DNA from: Hahella ganghwensis DSM 17046
GTDB lineage: Bacteria > Pseudomonadota > Gammaproteobacteria > Pseudomonadales > Oleiphilaceae
Direction: 5' to 3'
Assembly (NCBI RefSeq): GCF_000376785.1
Contig: NZ_AQXX01000137.1
Location: 62,001-126,000 of the forward strand
Length of the DNA: 64,000 bases
The notes below the pieces were generated by a model. That model did no database searches and was not told where the DNA came from. It saw only the letters and a list, made by a program, of their open reading frames with translations. Position numbers and translations under genes: made by a program. Of this stretch, positions 11,640 to 37,395 are shown one piece after another (positions within the stretch are counted from its first letter, which is position 1; each line of letters opens with the position of its first letter).

Positions 11640-11729
11640 GGTGAGGTGTCCGAGTGGTTGAAGGAGCACGCCTGGAAAGCGTGTATACGTTAACGCGTAT
11701 CGAGGGTTCGAATCCCTCCCTCACCGCCA
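11640..11729 (+). tRNA. tRNA-Ser (anticodon GGA)
   Basis: A 90-base cloverleaf can be drawn. Acceptor arms GGTGAGG (11640-11646) and CCTCACC (11719-11725) pair, the discriminator is G and CCA is encoded (11727-11729). The anticodon stem CACGC/GCGTG surrounds a seven-base loop with GGA at 11674-11676. The long variable arm and the T-arm GGTTCGAATCC identify a class II serine tRNA reading UCC and UCU. It lies at the left boundary of the prophage and is the likely integration target. Confidence 0.97.
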
Positions 11730-12508: not shown

Positions 12509-12748
12509 TTGATAAACGTTTTGCGAGTGCCCGCAATTCTCACTCTATTGGCCGTAATAGCCTTTTGTCTGGCAAATGAATTGAGCCCCCTTGCCCTGCC
12601 TGCTGCTGGCGGCATTTATTGGTTGATCAAGACCGATCAAGGCGGCAAGTCAATAGAAGGTATCTACGCGGTTCTATTTACGTTCGCCCTCCTTAGCGGT
12701 TTTTCCTGGATTATGGTGCAGTTTTATGAGTGGCTGTTTTTTTCTTAG
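12509..12748 (+). CDS. Small two-to-three-helix membrane protein (79 aa)
   Basis: Translation most likely starts at TTG 12509, six bases after AAGGAG, one base after the WGR gene ends. The 79-residue product has hydrophobic segments near 6-22, 25-36 and 47-70, ending in W-L-F-F-S. With the WGR protein it forms a two-gene cassette convergent with the late operon; the stop codons TTAG/CTAA overlap at 12745-12748. The function is unknown; an exclusion or defence role is only a guess from the pairing of a nucleic-acid-binding protein and a membrane protein. Confidence 0.65.
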   Translation: MINVLRVPAILTLLAVIAFCLANELSPLALPAAGGIYWLIKTDQGGKSIEGIYAVLFTFALLSGFSWIMVQFYEWLFFS

Positions 12749-15700
12749 AAGTCGTCTTCTGTAAGTTCTGCATACATCCCGGATATTTCATTGCGAAGCT
12801 CGGTCAATTGATCGAGCTTTTTACGTTTGGCTTCTGCCGACATTATCCGGTTCCGGCGCACAAGATCCATTTGCTTACGAATATCCCCAAGGCGTTGGCG
12901 AGCTTTGCCCAGAGCTTTCCGGTACCGCAATTTTTCAAAGTTGCTTTTCGTCAGCTCCTGAGCCTCTTCAAAGCGCCCTTCTTTTCTGAAGGCGGTAATC
13001 GTTCGGTAAAGCTGATCCACCTCATTCCACCGGTCATAAACATCCGTGGTGTACTGAGTGGACTTGTTTGTTTTACCGCGATAAAGGGCTTTGATAACCG
13101 GCAAGTCCTCAAGCTTCCAATCTGGAGACTCTGCACGCCCTGTCATGGTGTTAGCAAGCATGTCGGCAGCGCCCAGGGCGTACATCCCCATAGTTCCCAG
13201 ATACCCATTAAACAAATGCTCGAGTTTTTTCGGGGACATTCCAGTCCACTCACCAAGCACACGCATTGTCATGCTTGTGTGCTCATCGTAGCGGGCCTCT
13301 GGCAATTTCCCTTCGTCCACCATTCCTTCAATCGGCTTATCAAAGAAAAACTGACGATTAGCGACACTCTCAATAATCGGCATGGCAAACTGAGGGGTCG
13401 GATTGATCGCCATGGTCTCCCAAAGATTATGGCTGATAGACCACATCAGCTTCTCGCTGTCTTGGTTTCCGGCCATAACGTGATAAATGCGCTCTGGTAC
13501 TGTCCCGAAAATGATCCCGATTTCAAAAGGCTTAGGTATGCGGTAGTGATCATCCCCTAACCAGAAATGCCAGTTGGCATCCTTATCCCAGTCTGGCAAC
13601 TCGTGGTAGCGCTCATCGTCATCATTCAGCATTGCCAGGGCAAAAGAAAACATAGCCAACTTAAACCCCGCATTCATCAGCACGCGCCTTGGATGCTCTT
13701 TGGCTGCTCTTGCCAGCTTGCTTATACCCTGAAGCCGGGCATTCATGAATGGCACCAGGTCAATCAGGTAATTCATAAGCTGAAAGTTTCCGCGTAGCGA
13801 GTAATCCATCAAATCCTTGGACTCAAACGCGGCCTGCAGAAGCGATTTGCCAGACCTCTTGGCGGCCTTATAAGTCGCCAATCTGTTAGCGTTCTCCACC
13901 CGGTCGCCAACTTCCCGGTATACCTGCCAGCCCTTCTTAATCGCACCATAGACCTGATCAGGGGTTCTAAGCAGAGAGTTAACGTATTCGTCCGCCTGAC
14001 GTCCTGACAGTCCCTTTTTGTCGAGTGCCCGCCTTATGATCTGAGCTGACGCCTCGGGATCTGTACCATGAACATACCCGCCTTGGAAAGAAGCGCCAGC
14101 AAACATCAGTTCGCGATATTCCGGATCCTCCTTAAAAGCATCTCTGAGCCCCTTGATTGAATCAGTGCCCAGCTTGAAACCATCGGGATTAATTGCCCAG
14201 GCGTGGGCGGCGTCACGGATAAAGTTTCGAATGATGAAATCTGGCGAAGAGGTAATACCCGTTGTTAACAGGCGTTTCATATACCTTCCCACTTTTGTCA
14301 CCGGGTCATTAAATCCAGATGATGAAAGATGGGTGACGGCTCTTAATAGTGCGGGGTCGTAAACCTTGTAATACTCGTCTTTTCCGTCACGCTGAACCCT
14401 GACAACGTTTTTATCTGATTTCTTGCCGACATAATCAACTGAGCTTTCCCCTTCGAACGCTTCCAGATAGTCACTATCCTGAAGATTATCGACCGTTTTC
14501 AGCAATGCACTGTTCTTCATGCTGGCGTCTGTCAGCTTCATCCAGTTGGTCAGAATATTCTCAAGCAAATCATTGGTAGCCATGTCGCCACCCCGCAAGG
14601 ATTTAATGCCTGCATTTTGGTGAGATAGTCCGCGTTTCGTTCTGGGAGCCAGCAAGGCAATATTGCCGTCGTCGCCCTCTTCCTGGCGGTAAAAGGGGAT
14701 ATACCAATCAGATTGCCACTTTTGGCGAGCGTCAGCGTTAATCAGTCCCGCCTGCTCAGCCATGTCCAGCATAGCGGAGTTGAGCTTTTTATACTCTGAG
14801 TGCATTTCCCTGAATAGGGCTTCTTTGCCGGAGGCGCGATTTTTTAGGGCTGCAATGTCTTCCCGGGTAAGGTTGTTTTCTCGCCCTTGCTCCATCAATT
14901 CTTCGGCGCGATGAGCCCCAACCCATGCAAGGAAATCATTCAGGTTTTCGCCTGCTTTGCCCAGGATCTCCAGAAGCCCCTTGGTCCCCTCTTTATATTG
15001 AAGGGCACCTGCTCGCCACTGGGGAGCGCCATAATGCAAAATTGCATGCATCACATCCGCGACGCCTGTAGCTAACCGAGCGCCGACGTAGCCACTATCT
15101 TCGGGGTTGGATACGCCTGCAGAGTCTTCAGCCCGCTTGATGCCTATGAGGCCGTCAAACATCCCTTCATAGGTTCGATGTTTAAACAGGGACCAGACTG
15201 ATTTTTCATTTTCTTTGGTGACTGCGCGGTCGAGAGATTCCCGTAACTTGGCCTCTTGTTTTGGGTTCAGGCCAAATTTATCTAAAACGGAGGAATCGCG
15301 ATCTGGAGTAATTGAGAATAATGGCGCATCAGTTCCTTTGTTTTTTTGATTGCTTTGATACACCTGGGACGCTTCAAACGCCATGACGTGCAGAGGCCCG
15401 CCAATATCTCTGTAGTCAAAGATTATCCCGTCATACCCTTTGGCCCTCAGTCGGTCAGCAAATTGTTTTGCCGCCTCCTGACTATCGAACGAAGGCACAT
15501 CCTCCGTTTTATAAACCTTGGGTTTTCGAATATCCAGATAAACGCTATCAACAGTTGAGCCATATCTGGATGCATCAGAATTGCTAGTGGTAAACCAAAC
15601 CCCCAAAGCTGCAGAAGGGTGATTGGTGGCCTTCCCTATTTGGTCTCGTCCAAAGTTTCCGATTGAGAGCCCGGCTTCTGATCCTCTGAAGACTCTAACA

Positions 15701-16422
15701 GGTCGTCCGTGTTTACCCCTAATCCGTGTTTGTAAGTGCCAATCAGGTGCGGGTTTTCCCGCAAGATTTCGGCCAAACTCTTCACTGGCTTCCCGTTGTC
15801 TTCTTCCAGATCCAGGTTCACTACTTCTGCTTTGCTCATTGTTTTCACCTTTCGACATAAACCTAATGTCATCATTGTCACGATACAACGATTCCCCGCG
15901 CCCTTCCATAGCTGCGCGCGCGTTGCTCAACAACAAAAGAAGCTCGCTATTTGATAGATCTGCTGTTTTCAGGAATCCGTTACGGCGTAACCACTGTCGG
16001 AACCGACCCATTAGCTCCTGAACCGCCCGCTTAATGCTGGGCTTATTTTGTTCTGCTATGTGCGCCAATAACTCATCCATCATTACCTGGATCTTTGTAT
16101 CACGAGGTAATGAGTCCAGACCTACAGCATACTTTTTAAGATCGATATTGTTTGCTTTGGCAATCTCATTAAATCCGCGAGCCCCGCCAATTGCCATAAA
16201 AAGCTTACGCAATTCCCTGGCCAGATCTTGCCCATACAGTGCCCGTAACCCATAATGCCCATAGCCCTCATGAAACAGAACTTTCTCAGCTTCTTGGACA
16301 CTATGCAGATTTTGACGCACCAAATATATGCGGCCGCCATGGAATACTCCTCTTATGTCGTTGGGGTCTGCGCCATAGCTTTCAGCCTGATACTCCCGGA
16401 AGATCATTAAACGATTCCACAA
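12745..16422 (-). CDS. Polyvalent DNA-ejection protein, C-terminal ORF (metallopeptidase-like, ART and LPD38 regions)
   Basis: This 1225-codon frame is the C-terminal half of a giant virion protein. Residues 20-60 are the second half of a peptidase-like domain with H-E-G-Y-G-H at 51-56. Residues about 225-350 resemble the ADP-ribosyltransferase of polyvalent proteins (V-R-V-F-R-G, then F-F/W-F-T-T and R-Y-G). The region from about 690 is LPD38-like, with hydrophobic stretches near 960-1010, and a charged coiled coil ends the protein. Such proteins enter the host with phage DNA. The frame opens at a TTG (16422) with no Shine-Dalgarno, and it completes a domain begun in the upstream ORF, so it probably is not an independent gene. 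Confidence 0.8.
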   Translation of the reverse strand: MWNRLMIFREYQAESYGADPNDIRGVFHGGRIYLVRQNLHSVQEAEKVLFHEGYGHYGLRALYGQDLARELRKLFMAIGGARGFNEIAKANNIDLKKYAVGLDSLPRDTKIQVMMDELLAHIAEQNKPSIKRAVQELMGRFRQWLRRNGFLKTADLSNSELLLLLSNARAAMEGRGESLYRDNDDIRFMSKGENNEQSRSSEPGSGRRQREASEEFGRNLAGKPAPDWHLQTRIRGKHGRPVRVFRGSEAGLSIGNFGRDQIGKATNHPSAALGVWFTTSNSDASRYGSTVDSVYLDIRKPKVYKTEDVPSFDSQEAAKQFADRLRAKGYDGIIFDYRDIGGPLHVMAFEASQVYQSNQKNKGTDAPLFSITPDRDSSVLDKFGLNPKQEAKLRESLDRAVTKENEKSVWSLFKHRTYEGMFDGLIGIKRAEDSAGVSNPEDSGYVGARLATGVADVMHAILHYGAPQWRAGALQYKEGTKGLLEILGKAGENLNDFLAWVGAHRAEELMEQGRENNLTREDIAALKNRASGKEALFREMHSEYKKLNSAMLDMAEQAGLINADARQKWQSDWYIPFYRQEEGDDGNIALLAPRTKRGLSHQNAGIKSLRGGDMATNDLLENILTNWMKLTDASMKNSALLKTVDNLQDSDYLEAFEGESSVDYVGKKSDKNVVRVQRDGKDEYYKVYDPALLRAVTHLSSSGFNDPVTKVGRYMKRLLTTGITSSPDFIIRNFIRDAAHAWAINPDGFKLGTDSIKGLRDAFKEDPEYRELMFAGASFQGGYVHGTDPEASAQIIRRALDKKGLSGRQADEYVNSLLRTPDQVYGAIKKGWQVYREVGDRVENANRLATYKAAKRSGKSLLQAAFESKDLMDYSLRGNFQLMNYLIDLVPFMNARLQGISKLARAAKEHPRRVLMNAGFKLAMFSFALAMLNDDDERYHELPDWDKDANWHFWLGDDHYRIPKPFEIGIIFGTVPERIYHVMAGNQDSEKLMWSISHNLWETMAINPTPQFAMPIIESVANRQFFFDKPIEGMVDEGKLPEARYDEHTSMTMRVLGEWTGMSPKKLEHLFNGYLGTMGMYALGAADMLANTMTGRAESPDWKLEDLPVIKALYRGKTNKSTQYTTDVYDRWNEVDQLYRTITAFRKEGRFEEAQELTKSNFEKLRYRKALGKARQRLGDIRKQMDLVRRNRIMSAEAKRKKLDQLTELRNEISGMYAELTEDDF
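15636..15839 (-). CDS. Possible nested gene inside the polyvalent ORF (67 aa)
   Basis: In another minus-strand frame, an ATG at 15839 preceded by AAGGTG opens 67 residues with balanced composition (M-S-K-A-E-V-V-N-L-D-L-E-E, later L-A-E-I-L-R-E-N-P-H-L-I-G). It overlaps the linker before the ART-like domain of the larger ORF, whose reading there still matches its family. It could be a true embedded gene or a chance frame. Confidence 0.25.
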   Translation of the reverse strand: MSKAEVVNLDLEEDNGKPVKSLAEILRENPHLIGTYKHGLGVNTDDLLESSEDQKPGSQSETLDETK

Positions 16423-19400
16423 GCTTCACAATGTTAGATCCGCCGCTCCAGTTGCGAGTAATCCGGGAGATAGCTTTTTCTGCATCCACCTTGGCGACAG
16501 CACTATTGCCAACGATTCCTGTAGTGCCGGCAATATCCGAGGACAGGCTAAAGAAGGCTCTTTCAGTTCCTGAAACCCTGCCTCCACGCTCTGCATCACT
16601 CTTTATTTCGCCATCTTCCTTATACAGATAATCCAGCACTTTTATATTTGCTGATCGAAGAAAGTTGGCTATATTTTGAAAGCTTTGCTGTGAGACACGC
16701 GAATAGTTGAAGTCTTTTAAAATAACTGCGGCCGCATTCGATTTATGAATTGCTTCCAGTAGCCGGTTGCTTTCCCCTGTGTGCTTTAGTGCTACCAGCC
16801 CCTTAGAATCAATACTTAATATCCCCGTAGGGGCATTATCATTGTTCATCAGAATAACTGCTTGTTCCGACGATACACCTTTAACCATTTTTCTAGCAAC
16901 ATCTGGCGAGGTCACAGGCTCCCCTATGGACTCACGAGAATACAGTACTCTTTCTGTTACAGGCTGCTTAAAGTTACGGGGGGCGGGAGTCGCTTCAATA
17001 GTCGCGCGATCATACTCTCCCTCTTTAAAGAATGTGGCTTTGCCTCCTTTTCCGATTACAACGTGACCACGAAAATTTACCCCGGTTCCTTCAAGCAGCT
17101 CACTAACTACAGTGGTTATTTTATAGTCACTGTCTGACGGAATGGTTTTCCCAGATGGATGGTTGTGCGAAAACCAAAAGTTTTTTGCCCCCTTAACTGA
17201 GACAATTGAGCCCGCCAGTATGCCGGGATCAACATCAGCCGAAGCCCTTAGACCTTTAGTGTGACGGATAACTTCTAGAATTTTGCCACCAATTCCCGTA
17301 ACTACTGCAATCATGGTTTCCTGACCATGCTTACGATATGGAGCTACTATATGAGCAATATCCTCGGGCGTGTTGGCACGGACCAAGCCAACATTTATGG
17401 TTTGGGTTTCTGTGGATCTTGCGGCTGTAGCAAAAGTATCTTTAAGGCTTTGTTTGCGCTCTTTTGCAGGTAGGGCGGCGGCGGGTAATAAGTTTTCAGC
17501 TGCACTGGAAGCGTTTCCACTACTTGACCTTTTGCTTGGTAACTTGCCGGTTTCTCGCTCATGGCTTCCGGTAATTTCCTTGTTAGTAGTTGCGGCGACT
17601 TCCTCATTATGCATTTTTACCGGGAGGTCATGAAGCGGTTTAGATAGATCTCCACTCTTAACCCAGTTTTTAAAGGTGTGTACGCCCAGGGGAGTTATCC
17701 CGCCCAGACCTGTCCAGCCCTTCGGATAGTTGCGCATGTATGCGCGCCGCGCTGCTAACTGATTGGGGAATCCCACCATAACCTTGTGTTCGTCAAAGTT
17801 TCCGTCTTTCCCTACCTGATCAATGACAAAAACCTGAGAACTGTCTGAATCATCCCCCAAGAATACGTCCACGTGCTCATTGTCAGCACCTGTTGTGCGC
17901 TTGATATAACCATAATGGGACTGGAGCTTTCTTTCCCACTTGGTTCCATTAGCAGACGTGCCGGACCGGATTGAGCCCTTTGGCTGCTCCACTGATATAT
18001 CAAGACCTTGAACCTTCACATGTCCATGCTTAAAGTTGCCAGCTTCTTTCTGAGCTTCCGTAGGCTCCGGCAAATCATTCAGCGGAGACGTGGCCGCTTC
18101 GTTGGCTAACGCCTCAACTTCCCGCCTTCCTACTTGATCGGTTCCCTCCTCTGGTATTACTTCGGCCTGAGAGAGATTATCAGTCTCTGATTGATCATCC
18201 TTAAGTGCTTCCGGGTCGTGTGAAGCATCAAACATCGGCGATTCACTGGTGATCTCGGGGGCTTGCTTAGGTTGTAATGCCCAATGCTTCGCGCCAGTTT
18301 TCACCGGTTCTAATTCCTTCTCTGTGCCCGCCTTCCGGTTGGCTCGCATCGCCGCAAGCTTGGACGGATAGACATCTGCCAGCTTTTCGGCTGGTTTACT
18401 ATCTGGGGCTTCTTGCCTCTGCTTTTCATTAAACGCCTTGATCTGCAGCTCAATTCTGGACGCAAGATCATCAGTGCGATCAACAGGGGTTCGCTCGAAA
18501 GGAATCGTGTTATTTTCGTCAGTCAGGGCCAGTTTGCTCTCACGCTGAGGCATGTCGGGCTTAACGAAATCGACTACATGCTTTGATCGCTCAATCTGTT
18601 CAGCCTGTTCCTGGCGTCGCACCTGCTCATTTTGCACACGCGCCTGAATTGGCTGAGGCTCAAGCCCCATGCCGTCAGTAAATGGGTTCGGGATCACCGG
18701 GCCTCGGAAATCTGAAAGCAACCCTTTTTGCTCTGTTTCATTTGTGGGCATTGCTGCCTGTTGCTTCAGGAGGTCAGCGCGACGTTTGGCTTGTTCAAGG
18801 ATCTGCTTTGGTCCGCGAGTTGGATTCAGTATCTCGTTGAGTCCGCGCGCCCCGTGATCGAAGTTTGGTTGTGCCTCACTTGGTTGCGGCAACCGTATAT
18901 CTTGCGGAGGTGCAGGAGTGATGGGCTCGACTGATGATTGAAGTAACCCGCCTGCGCCAGCTTCAGCCTGATCTAAGGCGTCACCTCCCTGGGCTCTCGC
19001 CTCGGACTGCGCACGCTCAATATTTTCAAGCGGTGAAAAGGTTCCTAAGGAGCCCCCCATAATTCCACCGGCAGCCATTCCACCAACGGCAGAGTTAAGC
19101 ACGTCCTCGGAAAGTTTCTGGTTAGGGTCCGCGTGCGTCAGCAACGCATAGTTTTGCGCCAGGGACTCTGCACCGGACTGCAAAAACTCCTGCCCGCCTT
19201 CGCCTGCAGCTCCTGCACCGATTGATCCCAGCCTGGTGGATGACAGCGGGAGACCTTGAGTCAGCTTACCTGTGACAGCTCCGAAGGGGGCGGATAACAG
19301 TAAAGTGGACAGAAAAGTTAGAGCCGAAGCCTTTTCACCTGCCGCGTCCTTTATCAGCCCTCTGGCCTGATCTTCATCACCGAAATACTGAAACGCTGCA

Positions 19401-20002
19401 TTATACTCTGGCTGTTCCATGAGCTGATCATGAGTCAAGGCGTCCACACGAGACTCTACGTTTGCGCCGGAAGACCCTGCAGCAACAGTAGCCTCTCCCA
19501 CCCCATAGCCCAATGCTCCAGCTACCACGGGCGTGAGTTTTGGGACTAATTGAAAACCTTTAGCGAAAAGACCGCCCAGCCCCATCCCAGCTGCTGTACC
19601 AAGCGCACTCTGACCAAGTGATAACTTAACTGTATCCCAGGATGCATCCCCAAGCGAATAGCTACCGCTCTCATCCTCATGGATAAATTGTTTAGCAACC
19701 TCTTGTTTCGCATAGTCGGATAATCCGTCAGCCCAATACTCAACCGCTCGACGCCCCAAATCCTGCACAAACTGGCCTGAATCCTCAAATCCTGCTTGTT
19801 TCGCAAGCCAGCCAACTCCCTCAGCAACAGATGCCCCCCCCATCATGATGGACCGGCCATGATCCCCCCATGTTAAACCGTCCTCGGCTTTCGGGTCTTC
19901 GCTCTTGGCGTCGTAACGGGGAACACTACCAACATCAGACCAAGGCGACATAGTAGACTGAGGCTGGCTATATTGATTAATTAGTTCGTCAAACTGACCC
20001 AT
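16382..20002 (-). CDS. Polyvalent DNA-ejection protein, N-terminal ORF (InPase-like and RadC/JAB domains)
   Basis: The 1206-residue frame starts at ATG 20002 after AAGG. An alanine/glycine-rich hydrophobic region (about 125-290) could insert in a membrane, and a long charged linker follows. Residues about 660-785 match the InPase-like domain of polyvalent proteins. Residues about 865-990 are a RadC-type JAB domain with the H-N-H-P-S-G...P-S-D-S-D zinc signature near residue 945, then a second weaker domain of similar size. The last residues (N-W-S...V-E-S-F-N-D-L-P) are the first half of the peptidase-like domain completed in the next ORF. The two are separated by a +1 frame change, possibly one extra G. 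Confidence 0.85.
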   Translation of the reverse strand: MGQFDELINQYSQPQSTMSPWSDVGSVPRYDAKSEDPKAEDGLTWGDHGRSIMMGGASVAEGVGWLAKQAGFEDSGQFVQDLGRRAVEYWADGLSDYAKQEVAKQFIHEDESGSYSLGDASWDTVKLSLGQSALGTAAGMGLGGLFAKGFQLVPKLTPVVAGALGYGVGEATVAAGSSGANVESRVDALTHDQLMEQPEYNAAFQYFGDEDQARGLIKDAAGEKASALTFLSTLLLSAPFGAVTGKLTQGLPLSSTRLGSIGAGAAGEGGQEFLQSGAESLAQNYALLTHADPNQKLSEDVLNSAVGGMAAGGIMGGSLGTFSPLENIERAQSEARAQGGDALDQAEAGAGGLLQSSVEPITPAPPQDIRLPQPSEAQPNFDHGARGLNEILNPTRGPKQILEQAKRRADLLKQQAAMPTNETEQKGLLSDFRGPVIPNPFTDGMGLEPQPIQARVQNEQVRRQEQAEQIERSKHVVDFVKPDMPQRESKLALTDENNTIPFERTPVDRTDDLASRIELQIKAFNEKQRQEAPDSKPAEKLADVYPSKLAAMRANRKAGTEKELEPVKTGAKHWALQPKQAPEITSESPMFDASHDPEALKDDQSETDNLSQAEVIPEEGTDQVGRREVEALANEAATSPLNDLPEPTEAQKEAGNFKHGHVKVQGLDISVEQPKGSIRSGTSANGTKWERKLQSHYGYIKRTTGADNEHVDVFLGDDSDSSQVFVIDQVGKDGNFDEHKVMVGFPNQLAARRAYMRNYPKGWTGLGGITPLGVHTFKNWVKSGDLSKPLHDLPVKMHNEEVAATTNKEITGSHERETGKLPSKRSSSGNASSAAENLLPAAALPAKERKQSLKDTFATAARSTETQTINVGLVRANTPEDIAHIVAPYRKHGQETMIAVVTGIGGKILEVIRHTKGLRASADVDPGILAGSIVSVKGAKNFWFSHNHPSGKTIPSDSDYKITTVVSELLEGTGVNFRGHVVIGKGGKATFFKEGEYDRATIEATPAPRNFKQPVTERVLYSRESIGEPVTSPDVARKMVKGVSSEQAVILMNNDNAPTGILSIDSKGLVALKHTGESNRLLEAIHKSNAAAVILKDFNYSRVSQQSFQNIANFLRSANIKVLDYLYKEDGEIKSDAERGGRVSGTERAFFSLSSDIAGTTGIVGNSAVAKVDAEKAISRITRNWSGGSNIVKLVESFNDLPGVSG

Positions 20003-20013
20003 GTTGTACCTTG

Positions 20014-20029
20014 TTATTATTCTTATTAG
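20014..20029 (-). promoter_or_regulatory. Late-gene leader motif copy (polyvalent gene)
   Basis: On the coding strand this reads CTAATAAGAATAATAA, ending about 12 bases before the start codon and just upstream of the AAGG site. It is one of several similar leaders in front of late genes. Confidence 0.5.
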
Positions 20030-20032
20030 TAG

Positions 20033-21103
20033 TTAGTTCTGGCGCTGATAGTAGGCTCTTAGCTGATCGACCTGCTCCCTGAGATCGTCTGGTAGCTCTT
20101 CATAAAATATCGCCATTTCATCTACGACCGGTCTGGCTGGCAGCTCGCCTTTTTGGAGAGATGAGATGAACTCAGACTTTGCCCGATCAAACTGATCGGG
20201 AGAGCGTCGATATTTGGCATTGAACTCATGAAATCTATTTAGCTTATCTCGTGAAACCTTCCTCTTTTCGGCAACTTCATTGGCTCGTATTTCTTCACGC
20301 TCCTCTTTCTTGGCAATTATTGTCGCTGGATCTTGGGCTAACATTCCGCCTTGCGGCTGTTCATTTGGGCTAAGCATGGGTACTGGCTTATCTTCCGAAG
20401 CGGTGACATCAGCTTTATCGGTTCCGCGCGATTCGAGTAGAGATTTCACCCGGTTAATGGTTTCATCATCAAATCGACCTGAGCTTGTAAACTCTGCTAG
20501 AAAAGTCCTTTCCTGACCTTCGGGAACTTGCTTCAACATCTGCGCCAATAGATTTTCGTCCAAGGTTGCTGGTCGTTGCTTCTGCTGAGGCGCATTAGGG
20601 TTTCGTGTCAGGCTCTCAAGCTCGCCCATTAACGAAGCCTTTCGCCTTTTAAGGCTCTCCCATTCTTGGGTTTGTTGGGGTGAAAGGGTGCTGGGATTCC
20701 CCAATTCATCCGTCCCCCCCATAGCTTTAATTAAGTTGGACTCAATCCCATTAATGTGTGAAAGCTCTTTTTCCAGTGTTGAAATACGCTGCGACTGCCA
20801 GGCGGGCAATTCGTTTCTGGATGAAGTAGAGGCTTTGATAGATAGCAGCCCTTTTTGCCGTTTCATCTCATTGTCATGATTCAAGCCGGCCATTTTCTCG
20901 TCGTGTGCCTGCTGGTCGTCTTGGCGGACCATGGCGTTATTGTGCTGAATACCGGTAATCTCTACCTCTTGATTAAAGCGACCGCTATCCAGTAATTGTT
21001 GCCGCTTCAACTCTGCATCCTTACGTAATTTGTCGCCAATTCCCTGGGCAGCGTTACCAGCTCCACCCAGAACCATTTGACTCAACAAACCGCCCGCGCT
21101 CAT
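20033..21103 (-). CDS. Putative internal virion/ejection protein (356 aa)
   Basis: I do not recognise a family. The 356-residue protein is strongly helical and charged, with glutamine- and lysine-rich coiled-coil stretches (about 25-90 and 235-300), and starts M-S-A-G-G-L-L-S-Q; a second K-G-L-L-S lies near residue 85. ATG 21103 follows AGGAGGTG and overlaps the previous stop (ATGA), so translation is coupled. Position between tail genes and the polyvalent protein suggests a DNA-ejection or core protein. Confidence 0.75.
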   Translation of the reverse strand: MSAGGLLSQMVLGGAGNAAQGIGDKLRKDAELKRQQLLDSGRFNQEVEITGIQHNNAMVRQDDQQAHDEKMAGLNHDNEMKRQKGLLSIKASTSSRNELPAWQSQRISTLEKELSHINGIESNLIKAMGGTDELGNPSTLSPQQTQEWESLKRRKASLMGELESLTRNPNAPQQKQRPATLDENLLAQMLKQVPEGQERTFLAEFTSSGRFDDETINRVKSLLESRGTDKADVTASEDKPVPMLSPNEQPQGGMLAQDPATIIAKKEEREEIRANEVAEKRKVSRDKLNRFHEFNAKYRRSPDQFDRAKSEFISSLQKGELPARPVVDEMAIFYEELPDDLREQVDQLRAYYQRQN

Positions 21104-21672
21104 TGCTGCACCTCCTGAGTATTAACTGGGGCAGTCTGTCGCCCACCTCTGGCCTTTTGCTCCATTTGCTCAAGCTTGGATAGTAGCTGGGAGTACGCCT
21201 GGCGCTGATTCTGGCTTAATGCCTCCTCGCTTGCTTCGCTCGCAAACTGAACCATCCCATCATAAAAAGCGTTTTCAGTGGCCTGGGCTTCATTCTCTGG
21301 TGTTAGTACGCCCATTTTCTGGGCCACCTCAGACATTCCCTTGGCTAACTGCATGCCTGCTTGAAACAGGACGTTAGGCGGAATCATCTTTCCTGATAGC
21401 ACAGCGGTTTGTGAGGACATGGTAAGTAAGCGGCCAATAAACATGGCCATGCCTTTGGAGGGATCACCGGCTTTGATAACTGACTGAAGGCCTTCTATCC
21501 CTTCGTCTGAATACAAATAATTCAGCATCTGACCGGCCACAATATCGAACTGCTCCTGTGTACCGTTCGTGTCATCTTGCGGGGTTTGGGCTTGTTGTGG
21601 ATTCTGCTGGGGCTGGGGTTGGGTAGAGGGCGCCCCTTGATCTGGACGCTGTGAAAGTAGACCGTTTTGCAT
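21100..21672 (-). CDS. Putative internal virion protein (190 aa)
   Basis: The 190-residue product has a Gln/Pro-rich N-terminus beginning M-Q-N-G-L-L-S-Q and then an all-helical domain (about 40-175). No catalytic motif is visible. It lies in the ejection-protein block, coupled by ATGA overlap to the next gene. Role inferred from position only. Confidence 0.75.
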   Translation of the reverse strand: MQNGLLSQRPDQGAPSTQPQPQQNPQQAQTPQDDTNGTQEQFDIVAGQMLNYLYSDEGIEGLQSVIKAGDPSKGMAMFIGRLLTMSSQTAVLSGKMIPPNVLFQAGMQLAKGMSEVAQKMGVLTPENEAQATENAFYDGMVQFASEASEEALSQNQRQAYSQLLSKLEQMEQKARGGRQTAPVNTQEVQQ

Positions 21673-21697
21673 GGGGACGCCTATTTTATTGTTATTA

Positions 21698-22639
21698 TTA
21701 TGTGGCGAAACTCAATAGCCCTTTATTGTAATTCGACAGGTCAACATTTGCACTTACCGAATATCCGGACGCATTCGGCGCGGGCGTGCTCGTTGGAGTA
21801 CCAAAAGCGGCAATAGCTCCTTTCAATCCACCGGACTGCCCGTCACCCTTTCGGGTTTCGCCGCCTGGGCCAGGGTTCAGGGTTCCCTTAGCGATCCCCT
21901 CGACGGTTGCGCCCGCTACACCACCAAAGGCACTCCCTACAGGGCCGCCAAGCAGCCCGCCCACCGTTGAGCCAATCCCCGCACCGGTCGAAACATCACC
22001 TTTCTTTGCCCCCTCGGCTTTCGTTCCAAAGTCGTTATCATCAGATGTGATCGCACCATCAACAGCCTGCTCAGCGACAGAGGACGCAACTTTTCCCGCT
22101 GCGCCAAACTTGCCAGTAAGACCGCCAAGCAGTCCACCAAAGACGCCTTTTGTACTCGCCTGCTCAGCTGCCGTTCGACCTTCATCAAGTGCCTGGCGTT
22201 CGTGCTCGTTCAGGTTCTCGCCACTCTTCTCACGTCGCTCAAGATTTGCCAGAGAATTAAAGCGGCCGTCATCGTCATAGTCTTCCTGGTGGCTTGATAG
22301 TGCCGGGTCAACGTCACCGGTTGCGGGCTGACCACCGCGCCCGTTACGTGCATTCCGGTTTGCCCTCTCCATTGCATCCCTTGCCCGCCCCAGATTTGTT
22401 TTATCGCCTGTTGCCGGGTCAACATTGCCGTTAGGAGGCTGACCACCTTTCCCTAAGCTGCCTTTTGTATCACCTCTTCCGGCACTACCGCCCATTGCCG
22501 GATCTGGACCAGTAGGCGCTTGACCGCCTCGGCCATCCCGCGCATTTTGATCAGCTCGGCCTGTGCTCCCTTCAGCACCGCTTCTACCCGATGGGCCGGT
22601 GCTATCTCTTTCACCGGCTCTGTCAGCAATGCCGCCCAT
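21698..22639 (-). CDS. Glycine-rich ejection-block protein (313 aa)
   Basis: The first 130 residues are a low-complexity Gly/Arg/Asp region with imperfect repeats of the type N-A-R-[DN]-G-R-G-G-Q. The C-terminal half is Gly/Ala-rich with G-G-L-L-G-G and G-G-P-V-G-S-A-F-G-G patterns that could insert into membrane, and the protein ends K-G-L-L-S-F-A-T. Start and previous stop overlap (TAATG). It is probably a virion component that acts during DNA entry; no enzymatic domain is seen. Confidence 0.7.
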   Translation of the reverse strand: MGGIADRAGERDSTGPSGRSGAEGSTGRADQNARDGRGGQAPTGPDPAMGGSAGRGDTKGSLGKGGQPPNGNVDPATGDKTNLGRARDAMERANRNARNGRGGQPATGDVDPALSSHQEDYDDDGRFNSLANLERREKSGENLNEHERQALDEGRTAAEQASTKGVFGGLLGGLTGKFGAAGKVASSVAEQAVDGAITSDDNDFGTKAEGAKKGDVSTGAGIGSTVGGLLGGPVGSAFGGVAGATVEGIAKGTLNPGPGGETRKGDGQSGGLKGAIAAFGTPTSTPAPNASGYSVSANVDLSNYNKGLLSFAT

Positions 22640-22908
22640 TAAGAAGCCCCCTGAGTAAGCAATCCTTTGGTCAATGAGCCGTACTGAGTTGACTTGGAAT
22701 TACCCGCGCCCTGTGCGTAGTAACGCTCGTTCTCCCAGTCATTGCGCATTCTATACAGCCGCTCCTCGTGTTTTTGCTGGTCCTTCTGCTGCAAGTAGGT
22801 CAAGCCTGCGCCCGCCGCTCCCGCGATAGCATCGGCTGCCCATTCATTCTCATTGACATAATCCCAGGCTTTACTCGCACCTGATACGATTTCGTTAAAC
22901 AGTCCCAT
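22639..22908 (-). CDS. Small ejection-block protein (89 aa)
   Basis: The 89-residue protein has an amphipathic N-terminus (M-G-L-F-N-E-I-V-S-G-A), an Ala/Gly helix near 27-40, a charged coiled coil (about 42-65) and a C-terminus T-K-G-L-L-T-Q-G-A-S. ATG 22908 follows AAGGGGA. It resembles small internal virion proteins of podoviruses in size and position, but I recognise no named family. Confidence 0.7.
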   Translation of the reverse strand: MGLFNEIVSGASKAWDYVNENEWAADAIAGAAGAGLTYLQQKDQQKHEERLYRMRNDWENERYYAQGAGNSKSTQYGSLTKGLLTQGAS

Positions 22909-22917
22909 GGGTTCCCC

Positions 22918-23973
22918 TTATGCGGCTATTGAAGGCAATGGCGATTGTCCAAAGTTGTTGGTCCACATTGGCTGGGCAGAGTACAGGCTCTGAGTAAACT
23001 GAATATCGGCGTCACGCATAGCAATGACCTGATCAATCAGCTTTTGACGATCAGAGGCCTTAATGTTCGGATCGGTCATGATGTCCTTAACGTCCTGCGC
23101 ATACCCTGCCAAAGTGTTCTCCATGTTCTTCAGGTACTGCCCGCGAAGATTGCTGGCAACTTCTTTGTCCAATAGTCCGGACTGAATCTGATAATCCAGC
23201 TTCGCCATGTAATCAGCATGCATGCGCTGTTGGTCCTGATTATAAAAATCCGCCTGCATTGCCTGGTTGAACTGATTGGCCTCATTCTCCATACCCGCGT
23301 TTGCCAGACTTGTGGCGCTTTGCTGCTGAGCATTGAACTGATTGGCTTGGTTCTCACTATCCATATTCGCCTGGGTCATGTTCTGCTCATTGGAGGCGTT
23401 GAACTGATTCGCCTGGTTCTGGGAATCCATGTTGGCCAGATTCATGTTTTGCTCATTGGTAGAATTGAACTGGCTTGCTGTGTTGGTCGCGTCCATGTTC
23501 GCCAGCGTCATGTTTTGCTCATTCGTCGCGTTGTACTGTAGCGACTGATTGGAGTATGCCTGGTTTGTTTTACTCTGATCGTGGTATGTCGCAGCGTCCT
23601 GCTGAGCAATTGGCAAGGCCGCATCGATAGCCGCGCCATGAGCCGCGCCTACCGCCATAGTACTGTTAAGCAGACCGCGACTATTGGCGGTTCTCAGTGC
23701 ATTTTGCTCTGCCCGCTTCATGTACGGGTTGTCTTGACTTAGCAAGCCGGTGAGCTGCCCCGATACGGTGGAATATGGATTTACCTCTCTTTGGTCGGCT
23801 TCATAGCTTGAGGCTGTGCCAGTGTTCGCTTCATAAGTCGCCGCATTCCCTTGCGCACCTTCATAACTTGAGGCCTCCCCCTGTGCGCCAGTGTACTGCC
23901 CAGCCTGCGCCTGTGTGGCTTGGTAGCCTGTCGGCTTTACTGAATTGTCAGTGTTTTGTGTGGTTGTTGGCAT
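22918..23973 (-). CDS. Repeat-containing ejection-block protein (351 aa)
   Basis: The N-terminus (about 16-60) has short Y-[ET]-[GA] repeats with a period of eight to ten residues. Residues 148-235 contain four 22-residue repeats with core N-E-Q-N-M-T-x-A-N-M-D and ending Q-F. The rest is helical, and G-L-L-S-Q and G-L-L-N-S occur in the middle region (about 77-105). It is very Asn/Gln-rich. The position after the tail fibre chaperone suggests an internal or needle-like virion protein. ATG 23973 follows TGGAG. Confidence 0.75.
   Translation of the reverse strand: MPTTTQNTDNSVKPTGYQATQAQAGQYTGAQGEASSYEGAQGNAATYEANTGTASSYEADQREVNPYSTVSGQLTGLLSQDNPYMKRAEQNALRTANSRGLLNSTMAVGAAHGAAIDAALPIAQQDAATYHDQSKTNQAYSNQSLQYNATNEQNMTLANMDATNTASQFNSTNEQNMNLANMDSQNQANQFNASNEQNMTQANMDSENQANQFNAQQQSATSLANAGMENEANQFNQAMQADFYNQDQQRMHADYMAKLDYQIQSGLLDKEVASNLRGQYLKNMENTLAGYAQDVKDIMTDPNIKASDRQKLIDQVIAMRDADIQFTQSLYSAQPMWTNNFGQSPLPSIAA
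23269..23532 (-). repeat. Four 66-base in-frame tandem repeats
   Basis: The repeats encode residues 148-235 of the 351-aa protein: three close copies of N-[AS]-[TS]-N-E-Q-N-M-x-x-A-N-M-D and one diverged copy. DNA copies differ mostly at synonymous or conservative positions, so they are old enough to be kept by selection rather than a fresh slippage. Confidence 0.8.
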
Positions 23974-23986
23974 TGCTCCAGCCCCC

Positions 23987-24556
23987 TTATAGCTCGTTCA
24001 GATCAGCGCTAGCGCTGTCAAGGATTGTCAAAATTTGGGCTTTATCCGTAGCGCCCTGGGTGGCTACCTTTGCGCCTCTGACAACCGCCTCTATTTGCGG
24101 GTCGATAACCCGCCAAAGATCCCTTGCACTTTCTATAAGTTCCGCCACCTCAGTCACAGATAGCCCAGTGGCCCCAGCTTCTGCGCATATGTATGGGTAA
24201 TCTGTGGTAACCGGCGAATCCGGTCGGCCGTCAGAAATCCATTTATCAAGCTCAAAGCTCTTTGAAATGTAAGTGGCATCCTTGTCAGGCGAGGAGAACC
24301 GGAGGCGACATTCCGTCGCGAGAGAGTCGAGCCTTACCAATGCGTCAGACCTGACTTTCTCCAGATCAGCCGCCGGCGGATCAACCAAATCAAATCCGGG
24401 GTTTGCTTTGACTATCTGCTTGCCCTGATTCTGCCCCTCAAATAGTCGGCGATATTCCCCCACTGAGATTTCTTCAGCATCTTTCGGCAAGTTGTTAAGC
24501 TCGTGATCCTCATCATTAAAAAAACCCTTTTCACTGAAGCTGTAAAAGTGCCTCAT
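23987..24556 (-). CDS. Tail fibre assembly chaperone-like protein
   Basis: The 189-residue protein starts M-R-H-F-Y-S-F-S-E-K-G-F-F and contains the phage fibre-chaperone pattern: an N-terminal part describing a beta-rich cap (E-E-I-S-V-G-E-Y-R-R-L) and a helical domain with the R-L-D-S-L-A-T-E-C-R-L-R-F segment. It follows the tail fibre gene directly, which is the standard position. It would help the fibre trimer fold and not be part of the mature virion. Confidence 0.8.
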   Translation of the reverse strand: MRHFYSFSEKGFFNDEDHELNNLPKDAEEISVGEYRRLFEGQNQGKQIVKANPGFDLVDPPAADLEKVRSDALVRLDSLATECRLRFSSPDKDATYISKSFELDKWISDGRPDSPVTTDYPYICAEAGATGLSVTEVAELIESARDLWRVIDPQIEAVVRGAKVATQGATDKAQILTILDSASADLNEL

Positions 24557-24558
24557 GC

Positions 24559-26934
24559 TTAATACCCCACGGCTATATAGGTGACTATTTGAGAGTCATC
24601 GATTGAACTTGCGCGATCCAGTGTGAAAGCCGTTCGCGACCAACTTGAGGCAGGAATCATCGCAGTAGACCCAGCGGTTTTCCGCATAGTTACCACTTGC
24701 CCGCAAGCATTTGGAAACGCTGTAGGAAACGAGAAGGATTGCGCGCCGTCGTTACTACTTGTTACCGCTCCCCATTGTAAATAAGTTCCTGTCGGCAAGC
24801 GCACATAGCCATCAGAGCTATGGCTGGCTGACACTGAGCTGTCCTGCAGGAAGTCAGAGGCGTGTTTTCCGTCGAGCTTATCCGCATCAATCCCAGAACC
24901 AGAACCATCAACAGTCAAAAGTTTGGTTTTGATCGCATTGGCTGAGAGCGAAGCGGAAATAGACTTGTTGGCACTCCCATCAATAGACGCGGAGCCCGTA
25001 ACATCACCTGTTAATGAAATAGTGCGGGCTGTATCCCATTTCGCGGCAGATGCTGCCACCGCGCTGATTCCCAAATATAGAGTGTCCGCCCAGCCCTTAT
25101 CCATGACGGTTTTCCAGCCCGACCACCCAGCATTGTTATAACTGCCAAGCCTGAACAGGTAATTGCCATTGCTGGTCTGTCCCGCGCTGTAGGGCGTGAG
25201 AATCTGCATGGCAGCCCCATCTTGCGACGATGAATAAGAGGGAATATTTATTAACCGTCCATTCGCGACTGGCCAACCGTCCGAACTTTGAACAAACGTG
25301 ACACAAAAGCCCGCTTGCGCAAACGTGCGAGGGGTATTGCTCGCATTATTAAAGGGAGATGAATAATTGGGCCAAGTGGACAGACTTCCATGGGTATGAC
25401 TGTCGTTCGATACTGAGGTTGTGATCGTTAGATTGGCAGAGCCGTCAAAAGTGCCTGAGCCGGTAACGTCGCCAGTTAATGCAAGTGTGCGCCCGCTCGC
25501 CAACTTGGTGGCCGTGGCTGCGTTCCCGGTAATGTTTCCAGGCATAGCGCCCGAACCGTCGCGCACTACCGCATCCCCCGCCCCAGAGCCAGCATTCAGG
25601 ATTGCCGCCGAACCAAGGCCCAGCGTTGCGCGGGCTTCAGTTGCGCTCGCATCATCCACCAGCGACTTGCCAAAAGTGGTAATAGCAGAATCAAGGAAAA
25701 AGGCACTGGCCTGCAGGCCGTCAACCGTATCCGCATCGAGACCAGAGCCCACGCCGTCAACAGTTTTGATCTTGGCCAGTACGTCGGCTGCGGTATAAGT
25801 GGCGGCCAGCAAGAAGCTACTGGCTTCAAAGCCATCCAGTGTGTCGGCATCAAGGCCTGATCCAGCGCCATCAACTGACTTTATTTTAGTCAACACATCC
25901 GAGGCGGTATAACTTGCAGCGGCCAAATAATAACTGCCGTGCTGGCCATCTAAGAGATCGGCGTTAAGCCCTGACCCCGCGCCTTCTCCTTTTGTTGCGG
26001 CCGTCCCCAGGTCTGGAATATCTGCCGCTACCAGGTTGACGGAGGGGCCAGACTTTCCGTTAACTTCAGACACAAGATTGGCGGGCAAAAGATTTGCAGA
26101 TTCGTAAGCCAATGAATCATTAATGGACAGCTCCCAGCCTACATCAACAGAACCAACACCCGGCAGTGTTCCCGCCACGGTAATTTGCCAGTATTTCCCC
26201 TCGTCACCAGAGACAGGCGGATCAATCGGGAGGGTGCCGCCTGAAGCATCCCAATAGCCAATAAATTTTTTAGCACCTGAGACGGTTTGTTCTGCAACTT
26301 TTGCCCAATGTTTAGCGGAATATTCGCCCGTTTCTACTGCGACATTCTGATTGTTTTCTGCCCATTGCTTGGACTTATCAGCATAATGCTTTGAAGAAAA
26401 CTGGCCAGATTCAACCGGTGCGCCCACCGCATTCTCAGACCATTGCCGGGCCTTGTCAGCGTAGTGCAAGGCAGAATAATCAATGCCCTCAACCAGTGAA
26501 CCGATAGCCTTACTTGCCCACTCCTGAGCTATACCTCGCTCGGTCCCTGCATCATTAGCATGGCCAAGCGCTATCCCTGCCTGTGTTGCGGCATCATTTC
26601 TATGCCCTAATGATTCGGCTGCATAGCCAAAGGAATCATCTCTTGCATCTTCAGAGAGCCCCTGTGCTACTTCGGCCGCCGCTTGGGCTGCAGAGGCTGA
26701 GTCTGCGTGCGCCTGCGCCTGTTGCTCTAACTCCTGAAGCTGGCCAAGGTTCGCAGCATGATCAGGGTCTGTCCCGTTTACCACATAAAACGGTTCAGCG
26801 AAGCCCTGGCCGTCTGGTCGGACCTCTGGCAATAACTCAAAAGATGTTTGAACGGCGCGCAGTTCGTTGGCCACGTCCTCCGCCCGTGCAAGATCGCCAG
26901 GCAACAAGGTGTTACCGTAAATGTAATAACTCAT
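24559..26934 (-). CDS. Tail fibre protein
   Basis: The 791-residue fibre has an N-terminal virion-attachment region (1-70) and an Ala-rich helical shaft (70-220) with repeated H-[YW]-A-D-K-[AS]-[RK]-Q-W-[SA]-E-N. A beta shaft follows, including repeats of the type G-S-G-L-D-A-D-T-L-D-G-x-x-A-S-x-F about 44 residues apart (about 316-406, with another copy near 690-715). The C-terminal domain has the G-W-x-x-W-x-x-V-M-D-K and L-Q-W-G patterns of phage receptor-binding tips. It contacts the host receptor. Start ATG overlaps the preceding stop. Confidence 0.9.
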   Translation of the reverse strand: MSYYIYGNTLLPGDLARAEDVANELRAVQTSFELLPEVRPDGQGFAEPFYVVNGTDPDHAANLGQLQELEQQAQAHADSASAAQAAAEVAQGLSEDARDDSFGYAAESLGHRNDAATQAGIALGHANDAGTERGIAQEWASKAIGSLVEGIDYSALHYADKARQWSENAVGAPVESGQFSSKHYADKSKQWAENNQNVAVETGEYSAKHWAKVAEQTVSGAKKFIGYWDASGGTLPIDPPVSGDEGKYWQITVAGTLPGVGSVDVGWELSINDSLAYESANLLPANLVSEVNGKSGPSVNLVAADIPDLGTAATKGEGAGSGLNADLLDGQHGSYYLAAASYTASDVLTKIKSVDGAGSGLDADTLDGFEASSFLLAATYTAADVLAKIKTVDGVGSGLDADTVDGLQASAFFLDSAITTFGKSLVDDASATEARATLGLGSAAILNAGSGAGDAVVRDGSGAMPGNITGNAATATKLASGRTLALTGDVTGSGTFDGSANLTITTSVSNDSHTHGSLSTWPNYSSPFNNASNTPRTFAQAGFCVTFVQSSDGWPVANGRLINIPSYSSSQDGAAMQILTPYSAGQTSNGNYLFRLGSYNNAGWSGWKTVMDKGWADTLYLGISAVAASAAKWDTARTISLTGDVTGSASIDGSANKSISASLSANAIKTKLLTVDGSGSGIDADKLDGKHASDFLQDSSVSASHSSDGYVRLPTGTYLQWGAVTSSNDGAQSFSFPTAFPNACGQVVTMRKTAGSTAMIPASSWSRTAFTLDRASSIDDSQIVTYIAVGY

Positions 26935-28511
26935 CTCTGCCAGTTCCTCAGAGTGTAATAAATCAGAGCATCAAAAAAGGTGTGCGGCCTCTCGCTTGCG
27001 CTATTGCCATATATAACAAAGGCCACGTTTCGACCAGTGCCCGCAATTTCTGCAAGCGCCTCAGAGTTCACCTGGGCGGACCAAACAAACTCATTCCAGT
27101 TCCCTTCGTCCCACGCGGAGCCCCCGCCGATGATGTCCAGCTCGTCCACTCGATGGGCACCACTATTCGGATCGTTGTAGTTAAAAAGCGGTTTAACTCT
27201 CAAGCTGACAGCCCCGGCCGCTTGAATGTTGAAGATTGCTTTTAAGAAGTGCTTTCGCTTTTGAGGGGTTCCAAAGTGCGCAAAGGCAAACCTGAAGTAA
27301 TACTCAATAGGCTCACCGTCAAAGCTGGTCCCTTTATCAAGACGCATCACCCAGCCATCCTCAGTCCCTGCCACTATGATTTCTTCTCCACTCGGCAACT
27401 CACCACGCTCGACACAAAATAGCTTGTGGTTGTATACCTGGCGCGAATAACCGACTAACTGATTACCTGAAAATGTGGCGGTTAAAATTTCGGATCCAGT
27501 TAGAGAGGCTATCGGGTTGAAATACCAGCGAAGCTGGTTTTTACGGCCGCTCACAACGGCATCGGTTAGCAAGCCCCGGCGATCACGCAAAAACGGATTA
27601 ACGCCCTGGCTGATCGTGCCCGAACTAAAATTACCGTAGGCCTGTGTCGCCTGAAGGCTGGTAAGCCCCCGGTCATCCAAGTAATACAGATCGTTATAGG
27701 ACAGCGCGGAATAGGCAACACCTCCCACTTTGTCATCGTGATTTCGTAAATCCTTATTAGCCCAGTCTTCCGGGCCGCTGCCGTATAGAATGGAAATCCT
27801 GTTCCGCATCATGACAACTAATGAGCCGCCGACAGTCAGATGCAGGCCTGTCAAATAGTCGCCAGCACCGAAGCCACCCGCCCCATTGATTGGGTCAAAG
27901 TCTGCAGGTTCACCAACGGCAGAGTAATAAACCATTCCTGTTTCGTACCCAAGGAACAGGTAGTTATTAACGACTGCCAGAAACTTGGGAAAGTCAGTTT
28001 CTCCAGGAACGGTGATCTGGGTAAAAGTGGTCCCATCGAACGTAAATGCAGGGTTTGCCCCGTCAGCTCCCAACATTAATTCAGCGGTTGCGGTTGCATG
28101 AAAGTTATTACTAGTAAATGAGTAAGTGCCGCCAGGATTCAGCGCGGGCGTTGCTACTTCAGTCCACCCGCTGCTGGATTCTTTGAACATCTTGCATTCA
28201 GTGCCGTCTGAGGTGTCACGAAAGCAAAACACCTGACCACCAAACACCCAGACCCCGCGAACAGGGCCGGAGCCTGGGGGCTTGCTGATCGCTGCCCGCC
28301 TTACAGCGGCTTCAGCTTCATCGGAGGTATCGGAGGGCGACAACTGTCCATCGTAACGCTCATAACCTTCTATCCGAGTGTATCCGCCCAGAGTATTCAG
28401 CTCGTAATTTTTACATGCCAGCATTCGCCCAGGTTTAACACTTAGCGCCGGTGTTTCCAGATCCAGGCCGCCCTCACACCTGATAATCGCCTCTCGCCTG
28501 TTATCCCTCAT
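26931..28511 (-). CDS. Tail nozzle/tubular-type protein
   Basis: The 526-residue beta-rich protein begins with a segment typical of podovirus nozzle proteins (G-G-L-D-L-E-T-P-A-L-S-V-K-P-G-R-M) followed by N-Y-E and G-G-Y-T-R-I-E-G-Y-E-R-Y-D-G. The rest reads like a beta-propeller. ATG 28511 overlaps the previous stop as TGATG; a GTG one codon earlier is also possible. It would close the short tail below the adaptor and connect to the fibres. No alternative function fits the position. Confidence 0.8.
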   Translation of the reverse strand: MRDNRREAIIRCEGGLDLETPALSVKPGRMLACKNYELNTLGGYTRIEGYERYDGQLSPSDTSDEAEAAVRRAAISKPPGSGPVRGVWVFGGQVFCFRDTSDGTECKMFKESSSGWTEVATPALNPGGTYSFTSNNFHATATAELMLGADGANPAFTFDGTTFTQITVPGETDFPKFLAVVNNYLFLGYETGMVYYSAVGEPADFDPINGAGGFGAGDYLTGLHLTVGGSLVVMMRNRISILYGSGPEDWANKDLRNHDDKVGGVAYSALSYNDLYYLDDRGLTSLQATQAYGNFSSGTISQGVNPFLRDRRGLLTDAVVSGRKNQLRWYFNPIASLTGSEILTATFSGNQLVGYSRQVYNHKLFCVERGELPSGEEIIVAGTEDGWVMRLDKGTSFDGEPIEYYFRFAFAHFGTPQKRKHFLKAIFNIQAAGAVSLRVKPLFNYNDPNSGAHRVDELDIIGGGSAWDEGNWNEFVWSAQVNSEALAEIAGTGRNVAFVIYGNSASERPHTFFDALIYYTLRNWQR

Positions 28512-29173
28512 CACACCACCACAACGGTCAGGGGATCAGCATCACGAGATGCGCCATAACGATACTTGTCAGGCAACTGGCTTGCCTTTAACTGCTCATA
28601 GCCTTCGGGATACTCTATCTGTACCCGCTCCAGCACTTCCGGCGCTGATTCATAGTGCGCGTACTTAATCAGCGCACGCATCCAGATCAGATCATGAAAA
28701 CTCTCAGGAATCAGCGGGATGTCAGTATTCAGGGCCAGTACTTGCGGCCGCCTGTAGTATGGGGCAATCAGGGTGTAAGCCTTGTCTGGTGTTGGGAAAA
28801 CTTTCAAGCCGCCGTCAGGCATTATTACCACTTGATAGGGTTGCCCCTCCCCCGCTGTGCTGAGCTGGTCCCAGTTCTCCCACTCAATCACTTCTACAGG
28901 ACTGCCATTGATTGAGAACTTGTCACGCTGCCAATAGTGATACTCAATCGGTGCGGGATAATCATCGCTCCCAGCCACAAGGGAAACCGTGTGATTTACC
29001 CATAGGAATTTCCAGTCAAAAAACTGTCGCTGAATATCAATGTTGGCTTGCTTGATCCAATTGACGAGCCTGGCGGCTTCACCAGTTTGACCGGTGACAC
29101 TGGAAGGACCAGCACCACCCATCAAACCAGCTTCCCGGGCAAGGTCGGCACATAGAGTGAGAAAATTTGCCAT
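28511..29173 (-). CDS. Head-tail adaptor protein
   Basis: The 220-residue protein has the podovirus adaptor layout: an N-terminal helix (F-L-T-L-C-A-D-L-A-R-E-A-G) and the conserved V-N-W-I-K-Q-A-N-I-D-I-Q segment, then a beta domain with Y-P-A-P. The P-E-S-F-H-D-L-I-W helix comes near the end. It joins the portal ring to the tail nozzle. It overlaps both neighbours by a few bases, so translation is coupled. Confidence 0.85.
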   Translation of the reverse strand: MANFLTLCADLAREAGLMGGAGPSSVTGQTGEAARLVNWIKQANIDIQRQFFDWKFLWVNHTVSLVAGSDDYPAPIEYHYWQRDKFSINGSPVEVIEWENWDQLSTAGEGQPYQVVIMPDGGLKVFPTPDKAYTLIAPYYRRPQVLALNTDIPLIPESFHDLIWMRALIKYAHYESAPEVLERVQIEYPEGYEQLKASQLPDKYRYGASRDADPLTVVVV

Positions 29174-30882: not shown

Positions 30883-30897
30883 GGTGAATTACTCCAC

Positions 30898-30918
30898 TTT
30901 TATTATTATTGTTTTTAA
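30898..30918 (-). promoter_or_regulatory. Late-gene leader motif copy (capsid gene)
   Basis: On the coding strand an A/T stretch with ACAATAATAATAAAA lies about 16 bases upstream of the capsid start, overlapping the scaffold stop. It is a variant of the AATAAnAATAATAA motif. Confidence 0.45.
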
Positions 30919-37389: not shown

Positions 37390-37395
37390 GCTGAT

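What the first reader, a model, noticed from the sequence alone, without database searches (positions are those of the whole stretch)
12745..20002. Giant polyvalent ejection protein split by one extra G
Two ORFs of 1206 and 1225 codons overlap by 41 bases. The first ends ...V-E-S-F-N-D-L-P-G-V-S-G, and the second contains A-E-S-Y-G-A-D-P-N-D-I-R-G-V-F-H-G-G. These are the two halves of one peptidase-like domain. Removing one G from the CCGGG run (plus-strand CCC at 16395-16397) gives L-P-E-Y-Q-A-E-S-Y and joins both into one frame of about 2420 residues. The second ORF has only a TTG start without a ribosome site. Either the prophage is damaged in a late gene, the base is a sequencing error, or the phage uses a programmed +1 shift.
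Basis: partly seen in the sequence, partly recalled or inferred. Interest (0 to 1): 0.7.

Follow-up and report, generated by a model that had tools for sequence, protein, structure and literature searches.

The report
Broken gene for giant virion protein
A dormant virus in a bacterium that is likely a Hahella carries, cut into two overlapping reading frames, the gene for a giant protein that related viruses read as one piece and likely inject into their hosts; the cut is likely a small real deletion, so this is an ordinary case of a damaged virus gene.

Summary
The two overlapping ORFs are real (16382-20002 and 12745-16422, minus strand, 41-base overlap) and are halves of one gene. ORF1 carries InPase and RadC domains, ORF2 an ART and the phage-type LPD38 domain; the break runs through a predicted HExxGH metallopeptidase. 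Of 84 related LPD38 loci that could be judged, 79 have one frame of at least 1382 codons and 5 are broken elsewhere. The window is thus 8 nt short rather than one G long, which favours a small real deletion over a base-call error or a +1 shift. ORF2 also has an ATG (16407), but its ribosome-site score is no better than that of internal ATGs. Best reading: a complete-looking, podovirus-like prophage of about 55.6 kb in tRNA-Ser of a likely Hahella, whose DarB-like polyvalent virion gene is broken, probably recently because both halves are otherwise open. An assembly fault, two working proteins or a programmed shift are less likely. Ordinary; low interest.

The parts
16382..20002 (-). ORF1, 1206 aa: N-terminal half of the polyvalent gene; InPase (residues 649-782), RadC/JAB (877-991), and the stretch aligned to the first helix and strand of the metallopeptidase domain; DarB-like PHROG match over 79-816
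12745..16422 (-). ORF2, 1225 aa from TTG (1220 aa from ATG at 16407): rest of the metallopeptidase with HEGYGH, ART-PolyVal (237-357), LPD38 (936-1110)
16382..16425 (-). 44-nt stretch over which both frames are open and in which the frame change must lie; 8 nt shorter than in most relatives between the conserved Pro and Gly codons (Pro codon inside it, Gly codon just after it)
20003..20030 (-). AU-rich leader (AATAATAA) in front of ORF1, shared with other late genes and absent before ORF2
11640..11729 (+). tRNA-Ser(GGA), the likely integration target; the 23-nt core 11702-11724 recurs at 67344-67366 (window numbering carried past its end), next to an integrase gene at 65891-67207
29938..40266 (-). 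late genes of the same prophage: major head protein (29938-30882), portal (32379-34439), large and small terminase (34955-37079), fibre-like protein (37396-40266)
20033..28514 (-). late genes just upstream of ORF1: four ORFs without a PHROG match, tail fibre assembly, tail fibre, amidase-like

Best explanation
The two overlapping frames at 12745-20002 are the halves of one LPD38 polyvalent-protein gene that relatives keep in a single frame, and the frame was likely broken by a small deletion, since the site is 8 bases shorter than in most relatives. The gene is the last late gene of an apparently complete podovirus-like prophage in tRNA-Ser. Inferred from relatives: the intact protein would be packed into the virion and ejected with the DNA to protect it (DarB-like), the metallopeptidase perhaps trimming the giant chain. 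As it stands, ORF1 is predicted to be made from its late-gene leader as a 1206-residue product ending inside the metallopeptidase; ORF2 would be made weakly or not at all, so the ART and LPD38 parts are likely lost. That both halves stay open for over 1200 codons suggests (inferred) that the break is recent.
For: One gene: 79 of 84 judged LPD38 relatives have a single open frame of at least 1382 codons; the closest relative L020 (76% over the LPD38 part) reads through the site; 15 of 33 loci found from the ORF1 side hold ORF1-like and ORF2-like parts in one frame; P0008 aligns to the end of ORF1 and then to the start of ORF2. Eight bases short: 22 nt against 30 nt in 14 of 18 rows (seven of the 14 being the profile's own seed rows) and 11 of 16 rows, the other 9 longer; read from the codons, L020 and the window need no other gap from the Pro codon to the Gly codon. 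Late-gene context. ORF1 has the AATAATAA leader, ORF2 does not; ORF2's ATG shows no ribosome site above background. Virion role of relatives: LPD38 protein gp69 of phage JC1 found in virions by mass spectrometry (PMC9144972, passages and tables); phiARM81mr p69 is one CDS annotated as putative virion structural protein.
Against: The junction is known from one genome only: the IMG/VR copy L019 is identical over 16.6 kb and probably the same assembly. The spacing is not invariant: P0208 has a much shorter stretch (8 residues from LP to the next conserved Gly, against 16-19 in the other five rows; it fell among the 24 rows set aside), so an extra base plus a natural 3-residue loss is possible. 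Only 5 of the 84 judged loci (L003, L020, L021, L073, L081) carry this metallopeptidase subfamily in clear form. The metallopeptidase name rests on motif and literature: no convincing Pfam match in three relatives and no significant fold match. The intactness of both halves would also fit two working proteins.
Confidence: 0.77

Rival explanations
1. Assembly or base-calling fault: the gene is intact in the real chromosome and would be one frame of about 2420 residues.
For: Draft assembly of 144 contigs; no independent sequence of the junction; both halves otherwise open.
Against: The site lacks 8 bases relative to most relatives and holds no long homopolymer; nine of ten other window genes scanned against Pfam matched a family with no break evident, a small sample.
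Confidence: 0.12
2. The gene has become two: ORF1 and ORF2 are made as separate proteins, ORF2 from ATG 16407 by coupling to ORF1 translation, and may come together in the virion.
For: ATG at 16407 begins 23 bases before the ORF1 stop codon; a gene call uses it; ORF2 stays open over 1220 codons.
Against: No ribosome site above background and no late-gene leader at ORF2; the split falls after the first helix and strand of the modelled domain (L020); no relative examined is divided here.
Confidence: 0.08
3. Programmed +1 ribosomal frameshifting joins the halves in normal phage growth.
For: Offset is +1 and a proline codon lies in the overlap; phage PSA shifts +1 on proline codons (PMC5009743, passages).
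Against: Relatives need no shift; the Pro codon is not next to the stop (four codons lie between); no stable structure follows (pseudoknots not modelled); the product would still be 3 residues short in a predicted helix.
Confidence: 0.03

Closest known systems
DarB-like LPD38 protein of Bcep22-like podoviruses (phage JC1 gp69, 4515 aa; PMC9144972, passages and tables)
   Same: LPD38 near the C-terminus, giant late gene with several other domains, podovirus with RecT and repressor genes
   Different: JC1's is one frame and was found in virions; here the gene is split and has InPase, RadC and ART, where gp69's listed domains include helicase- and methylase-like parts
Aeromonas phage phiARM81mr p69 (KT898134)
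   Same: 44% identity over ORF2 residues 378-1213, last large gene of the record
   Different: one uninterrupted CDS of 9.6 kb
Polyvalent proteins (Iyer et al. 2017, PMC5512222, passages)
   Same: several unrelated enzyme domains plus a metallopeptidase in one long gene; InPase and LPD38 listed there as phage-only
   Different: reading frame broken in the metallopeptidase; RadC, listed there as only in conjugative elements, is here in a prophage
Phage PSA +1 frameshift genes (PMC5009743, passages)
   Same: +1 offset with a proline codon in the overlap
   Different: no conservation, no adjacent stop, no structure found, relatives single-frame

Membership tests
Phage polyvalent / DarB-like LPD38 proteins | LPD38 domain in the C-terminal part | tested here: met
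   PF18857, 165.8 bits, cut-off 27, ORF2 936-1110
Phage polyvalent / DarB-like LPD38 proteins | several disparate enzyme domains | tested here: met
   InPase, RadC and ART above their cut-offs
Phage polyvalent / DarB-like LPD38 proteins | all domains in one polypeptide | tested here: not met
   two frames, ORF1 stop at 16382-16384: a broken copy of the family's gene, not shown to be a working member
Phage polyvalent / DarB-like LPD38 proteins | DarB-like N-terminal part | tested here: met
   phrog_10089, E 9.3e-64, ORF1 79-816; part of that score comes from the InPase domain
Phage polyvalent / DarB-like LPD38 proteins | packed in the virion and ejected | not testable with these tools
   presence in virions reported for JC1 gp69
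Zincin metallopeptidase | HExxH motif and zincin fold | tested here: inconclusive
Programmed +1 frameshift gene | frame change conserved among relatives | tested here: not met
   0 of 84 judged relatives split here
Programmed +1 frameshift gene | stimulating stop codon or RNA structure next to the shift codon | tested here: inconclusive
   four codons between Pro and stop; z +0.98; pseudoknots not modelled

The most novel reading that the evidence does not exclude
The phage still works with a polyvalent protein in two pieces: the break at the metallopeptidase does by gene splitting what self-cleavage does in relatives, with ORF1 packed by its own N-terminus and ORF2 made by coupled restart at ATG 16407.
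Probability: 0.06. Interest if true: 0.45.

Novelty: new member of a known kind. Interest (0 to 1): 0.15.

Why it matters
It corrects the cause given at first reading and guards against filing the locus as a frameshift signal. If the break proves real and the phage still forms virions, it would be a natural test of which parts of a giant ejected protein a phage can do without.

Full report
OBSERVATION. Both frames are open together over 16382-16425, so the frame change must lie there. Two details are not: ORF2 has an in-frame ATG at 16407, used by a database gene call for this contig (P0122, 1220 aa), and the cause is not best described as one extra G (below).

WHAT THE HALVES ARE. ORF1 carries InPase (649-782) and RadC (877-991) domains and matches a DarB-like PHROG over residues 79-816; ORF2 carries ART-PolyVal (237-357) and LPD38 (936-1110). 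Upstream of the ART in ORF2 is a HEGYGH motif, as in the metallopeptidase stretch of relatives. The end of ORF1 (1168-1202) and the start of ORF2 (from residue 22) match neighbouring parts of one relative, P0008, 798-832 and 848-1013.

RELATIVES ARE ONE FRAME. ORF2 was used to fetch 16 loci from genomes and 70 from IMG/VR; some are the same prophage in both. Of these 86, one (L019) is the window's own sequence and one (L017) begins inside the match. Of the remaining 84, 79 have the LPD38 match in an open frame of at least 1382 codons; 5 (L068, L069, L077, L080, L087) have shorter frames, broken at other places. Only five of the 84 (L003, L020, L021, L073, L081) carry this metallopeptidase subfamily in clear form; all five read through. 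From the ORF1 side 34 loci were fetched, one being the window's own; of the other 33, 15 have ORF1-like and ORF2-like parts in one frame; the other 18 run off the stretch held or show no ORF2-like match, and the six of them that end inside it have no LPD38 part. A search of 390 genomes of the order, the window's among them, found the protein in 11 others; their best matches lie in open frames of 743 to 3702 codons. The 743 (G091) and two second matches (408 in G021, 1138 in G272) were not followed further; the G091 match covers query residues 673-1212 only, and its frame ends within the LPD38 half. Within the genus, 0 of 6 other genomes have it. The 28-base junction occurs in IMG/VR only in the window's own genome.

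HOW THE FRAME IS BROKEN. In relatives a conserved Leu-Pro is followed by a short helix and a conserved Gly before the strands that precede the HExxGH helix (alignment; model of L020: helix 10-21, strand 31-34, helix 42-50, strands 58-63 and 66-70, helix 77-92). A profile built from seven relatives, without the window, was run over 234 proteins (three of them the window's own, set aside from the counts) and the forward frames of the loci. Of 94 distinct rows, 24 lacked a letter in one of the two columns; of the 70 others, 18 have both Pro and Gly: 14 with exactly 10 residues between, 4 with 12-16, none fewer (the seven seed rows are among the 14). The other 52 rows read 8-11 there; most look like another subfamily with no Pro at that column. 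Loci, not used in the seed, add 16 Pro/Gly rows, 11 with 10 and 5 with 13; 18 rows were set aside. Not all rows are independent. The window has 22 nt between these codons, 8 fewer than the 30 nt of 10 residues. L020 needs no other gap from the Pro codon to the Gly codon. One extra base would leave 7 residues, shorter than any of the 70 rows counted and the 16. Against this, P0208, among the rows set aside, has a clearly shorter stretch, so the spacing can vary. A small real deletion is thus the simplest cause, not a certain one.

IS ORF2 MADE? ORF1 has the AU-rich leader AATAATAA, which occurs 14 times in the window against 1.7 expected and stands before eight minus-strand gene starts (45618, 42405, 40653, 34789, 32006, 30882, 21672, 20002). 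ORF2 has none. Its ATG has a ribosome-site energy of -3.3; 44% of 57 internal ATGs are as good. Several accepted late genes of the same call also score weakly (for example -2.4 at 21672), so this is a hint, not proof. ORF2 is likely made weakly if at all. No shift-stimulating structure was found (pseudoknots not modelled).

SETTING. The gene is the last late gene of a prophage with head, portal, terminase, fibre, replication, repressor and recombination genes, an integrase at 65891-67207 past the window (PF00589), and a 23-nt core shared by the tRNA-Ser gene and 67344-67366: about 55.6 kb. I call it podovirus-like because no tape-measure gene appeared among the proteins scanned, an incomplete test, and because its relatives include Bcep22-like phages. 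The only strong named match to the host protein tried is Hahella sp. CCB-MM4, 67%; the genus rests on that.

FUNCTION. In the 2017 survey of polyvalent proteins (PMC5512222, passages) InPase and LPD38 are phage-only domains, metallopeptidases are proposed to process the chain, and the proteins are proposed to be injected early. The LPD38 protein of phage JC1 was found in virions, 51 unique peptides (PMC9144972). P1 DarB carries an N-terminal packing signal (PMC9024508, passages). So ORF1 alone might still be packed, but without ART and LPD38. These steps are inferred.

VERDICT. A known kind of giant virion gene, broken in one prophage; ordinary. Confidence is limited by the single assembly.

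Noticed in passing
20014-45636, minus strand, eight sites: The leader AATAATAA stands within 20 bases of eight gene starts, including the major head protein and ORF1; 14 matches in the window against 1.7 expected. Looks like a shared translation or transcription leader.
   Followed up: partly
54662-55306 and 55341-55976: Two CI-like repressor genes in tandem, both on the plus strand.
   Followed up: no
56051-56476: A stand-alone response-regulator receiver domain (PF00072) inside the prophage, between repressors and RecT.
   Followed up: no
23267-23527: Tandem 66-base repeats inside the 351-aa late gene 22918-23973.
   Followed up: no
ORF2 residues 52-57 and relatives: The metallopeptidase motif is HExx[GA]H, with three residues between Glu and the second His, not HExxH; no Pfam model passed its cut-off in the three relatives scanned.
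   Followed up: partly
ORF1 residues 877-991; P0009, P0010, P0047: RadC occurs with InPase (and in the three named proteins with LPD38 too), although the 2017 survey lists RadC only in conjugative polyvalent proteins.
   Followed up: no
L106 (phiARM81mr) 316-1949: A 23S-intervening-sequence-like gene beside a retron-type reverse transcriptase among virion genes; looks like a diversity-generating element (recalled).
   Followed up: no
L068, L069, L077, L080, L087: Other LPD38 genes with broken frames, none at the window's place.
   Followed up: partly
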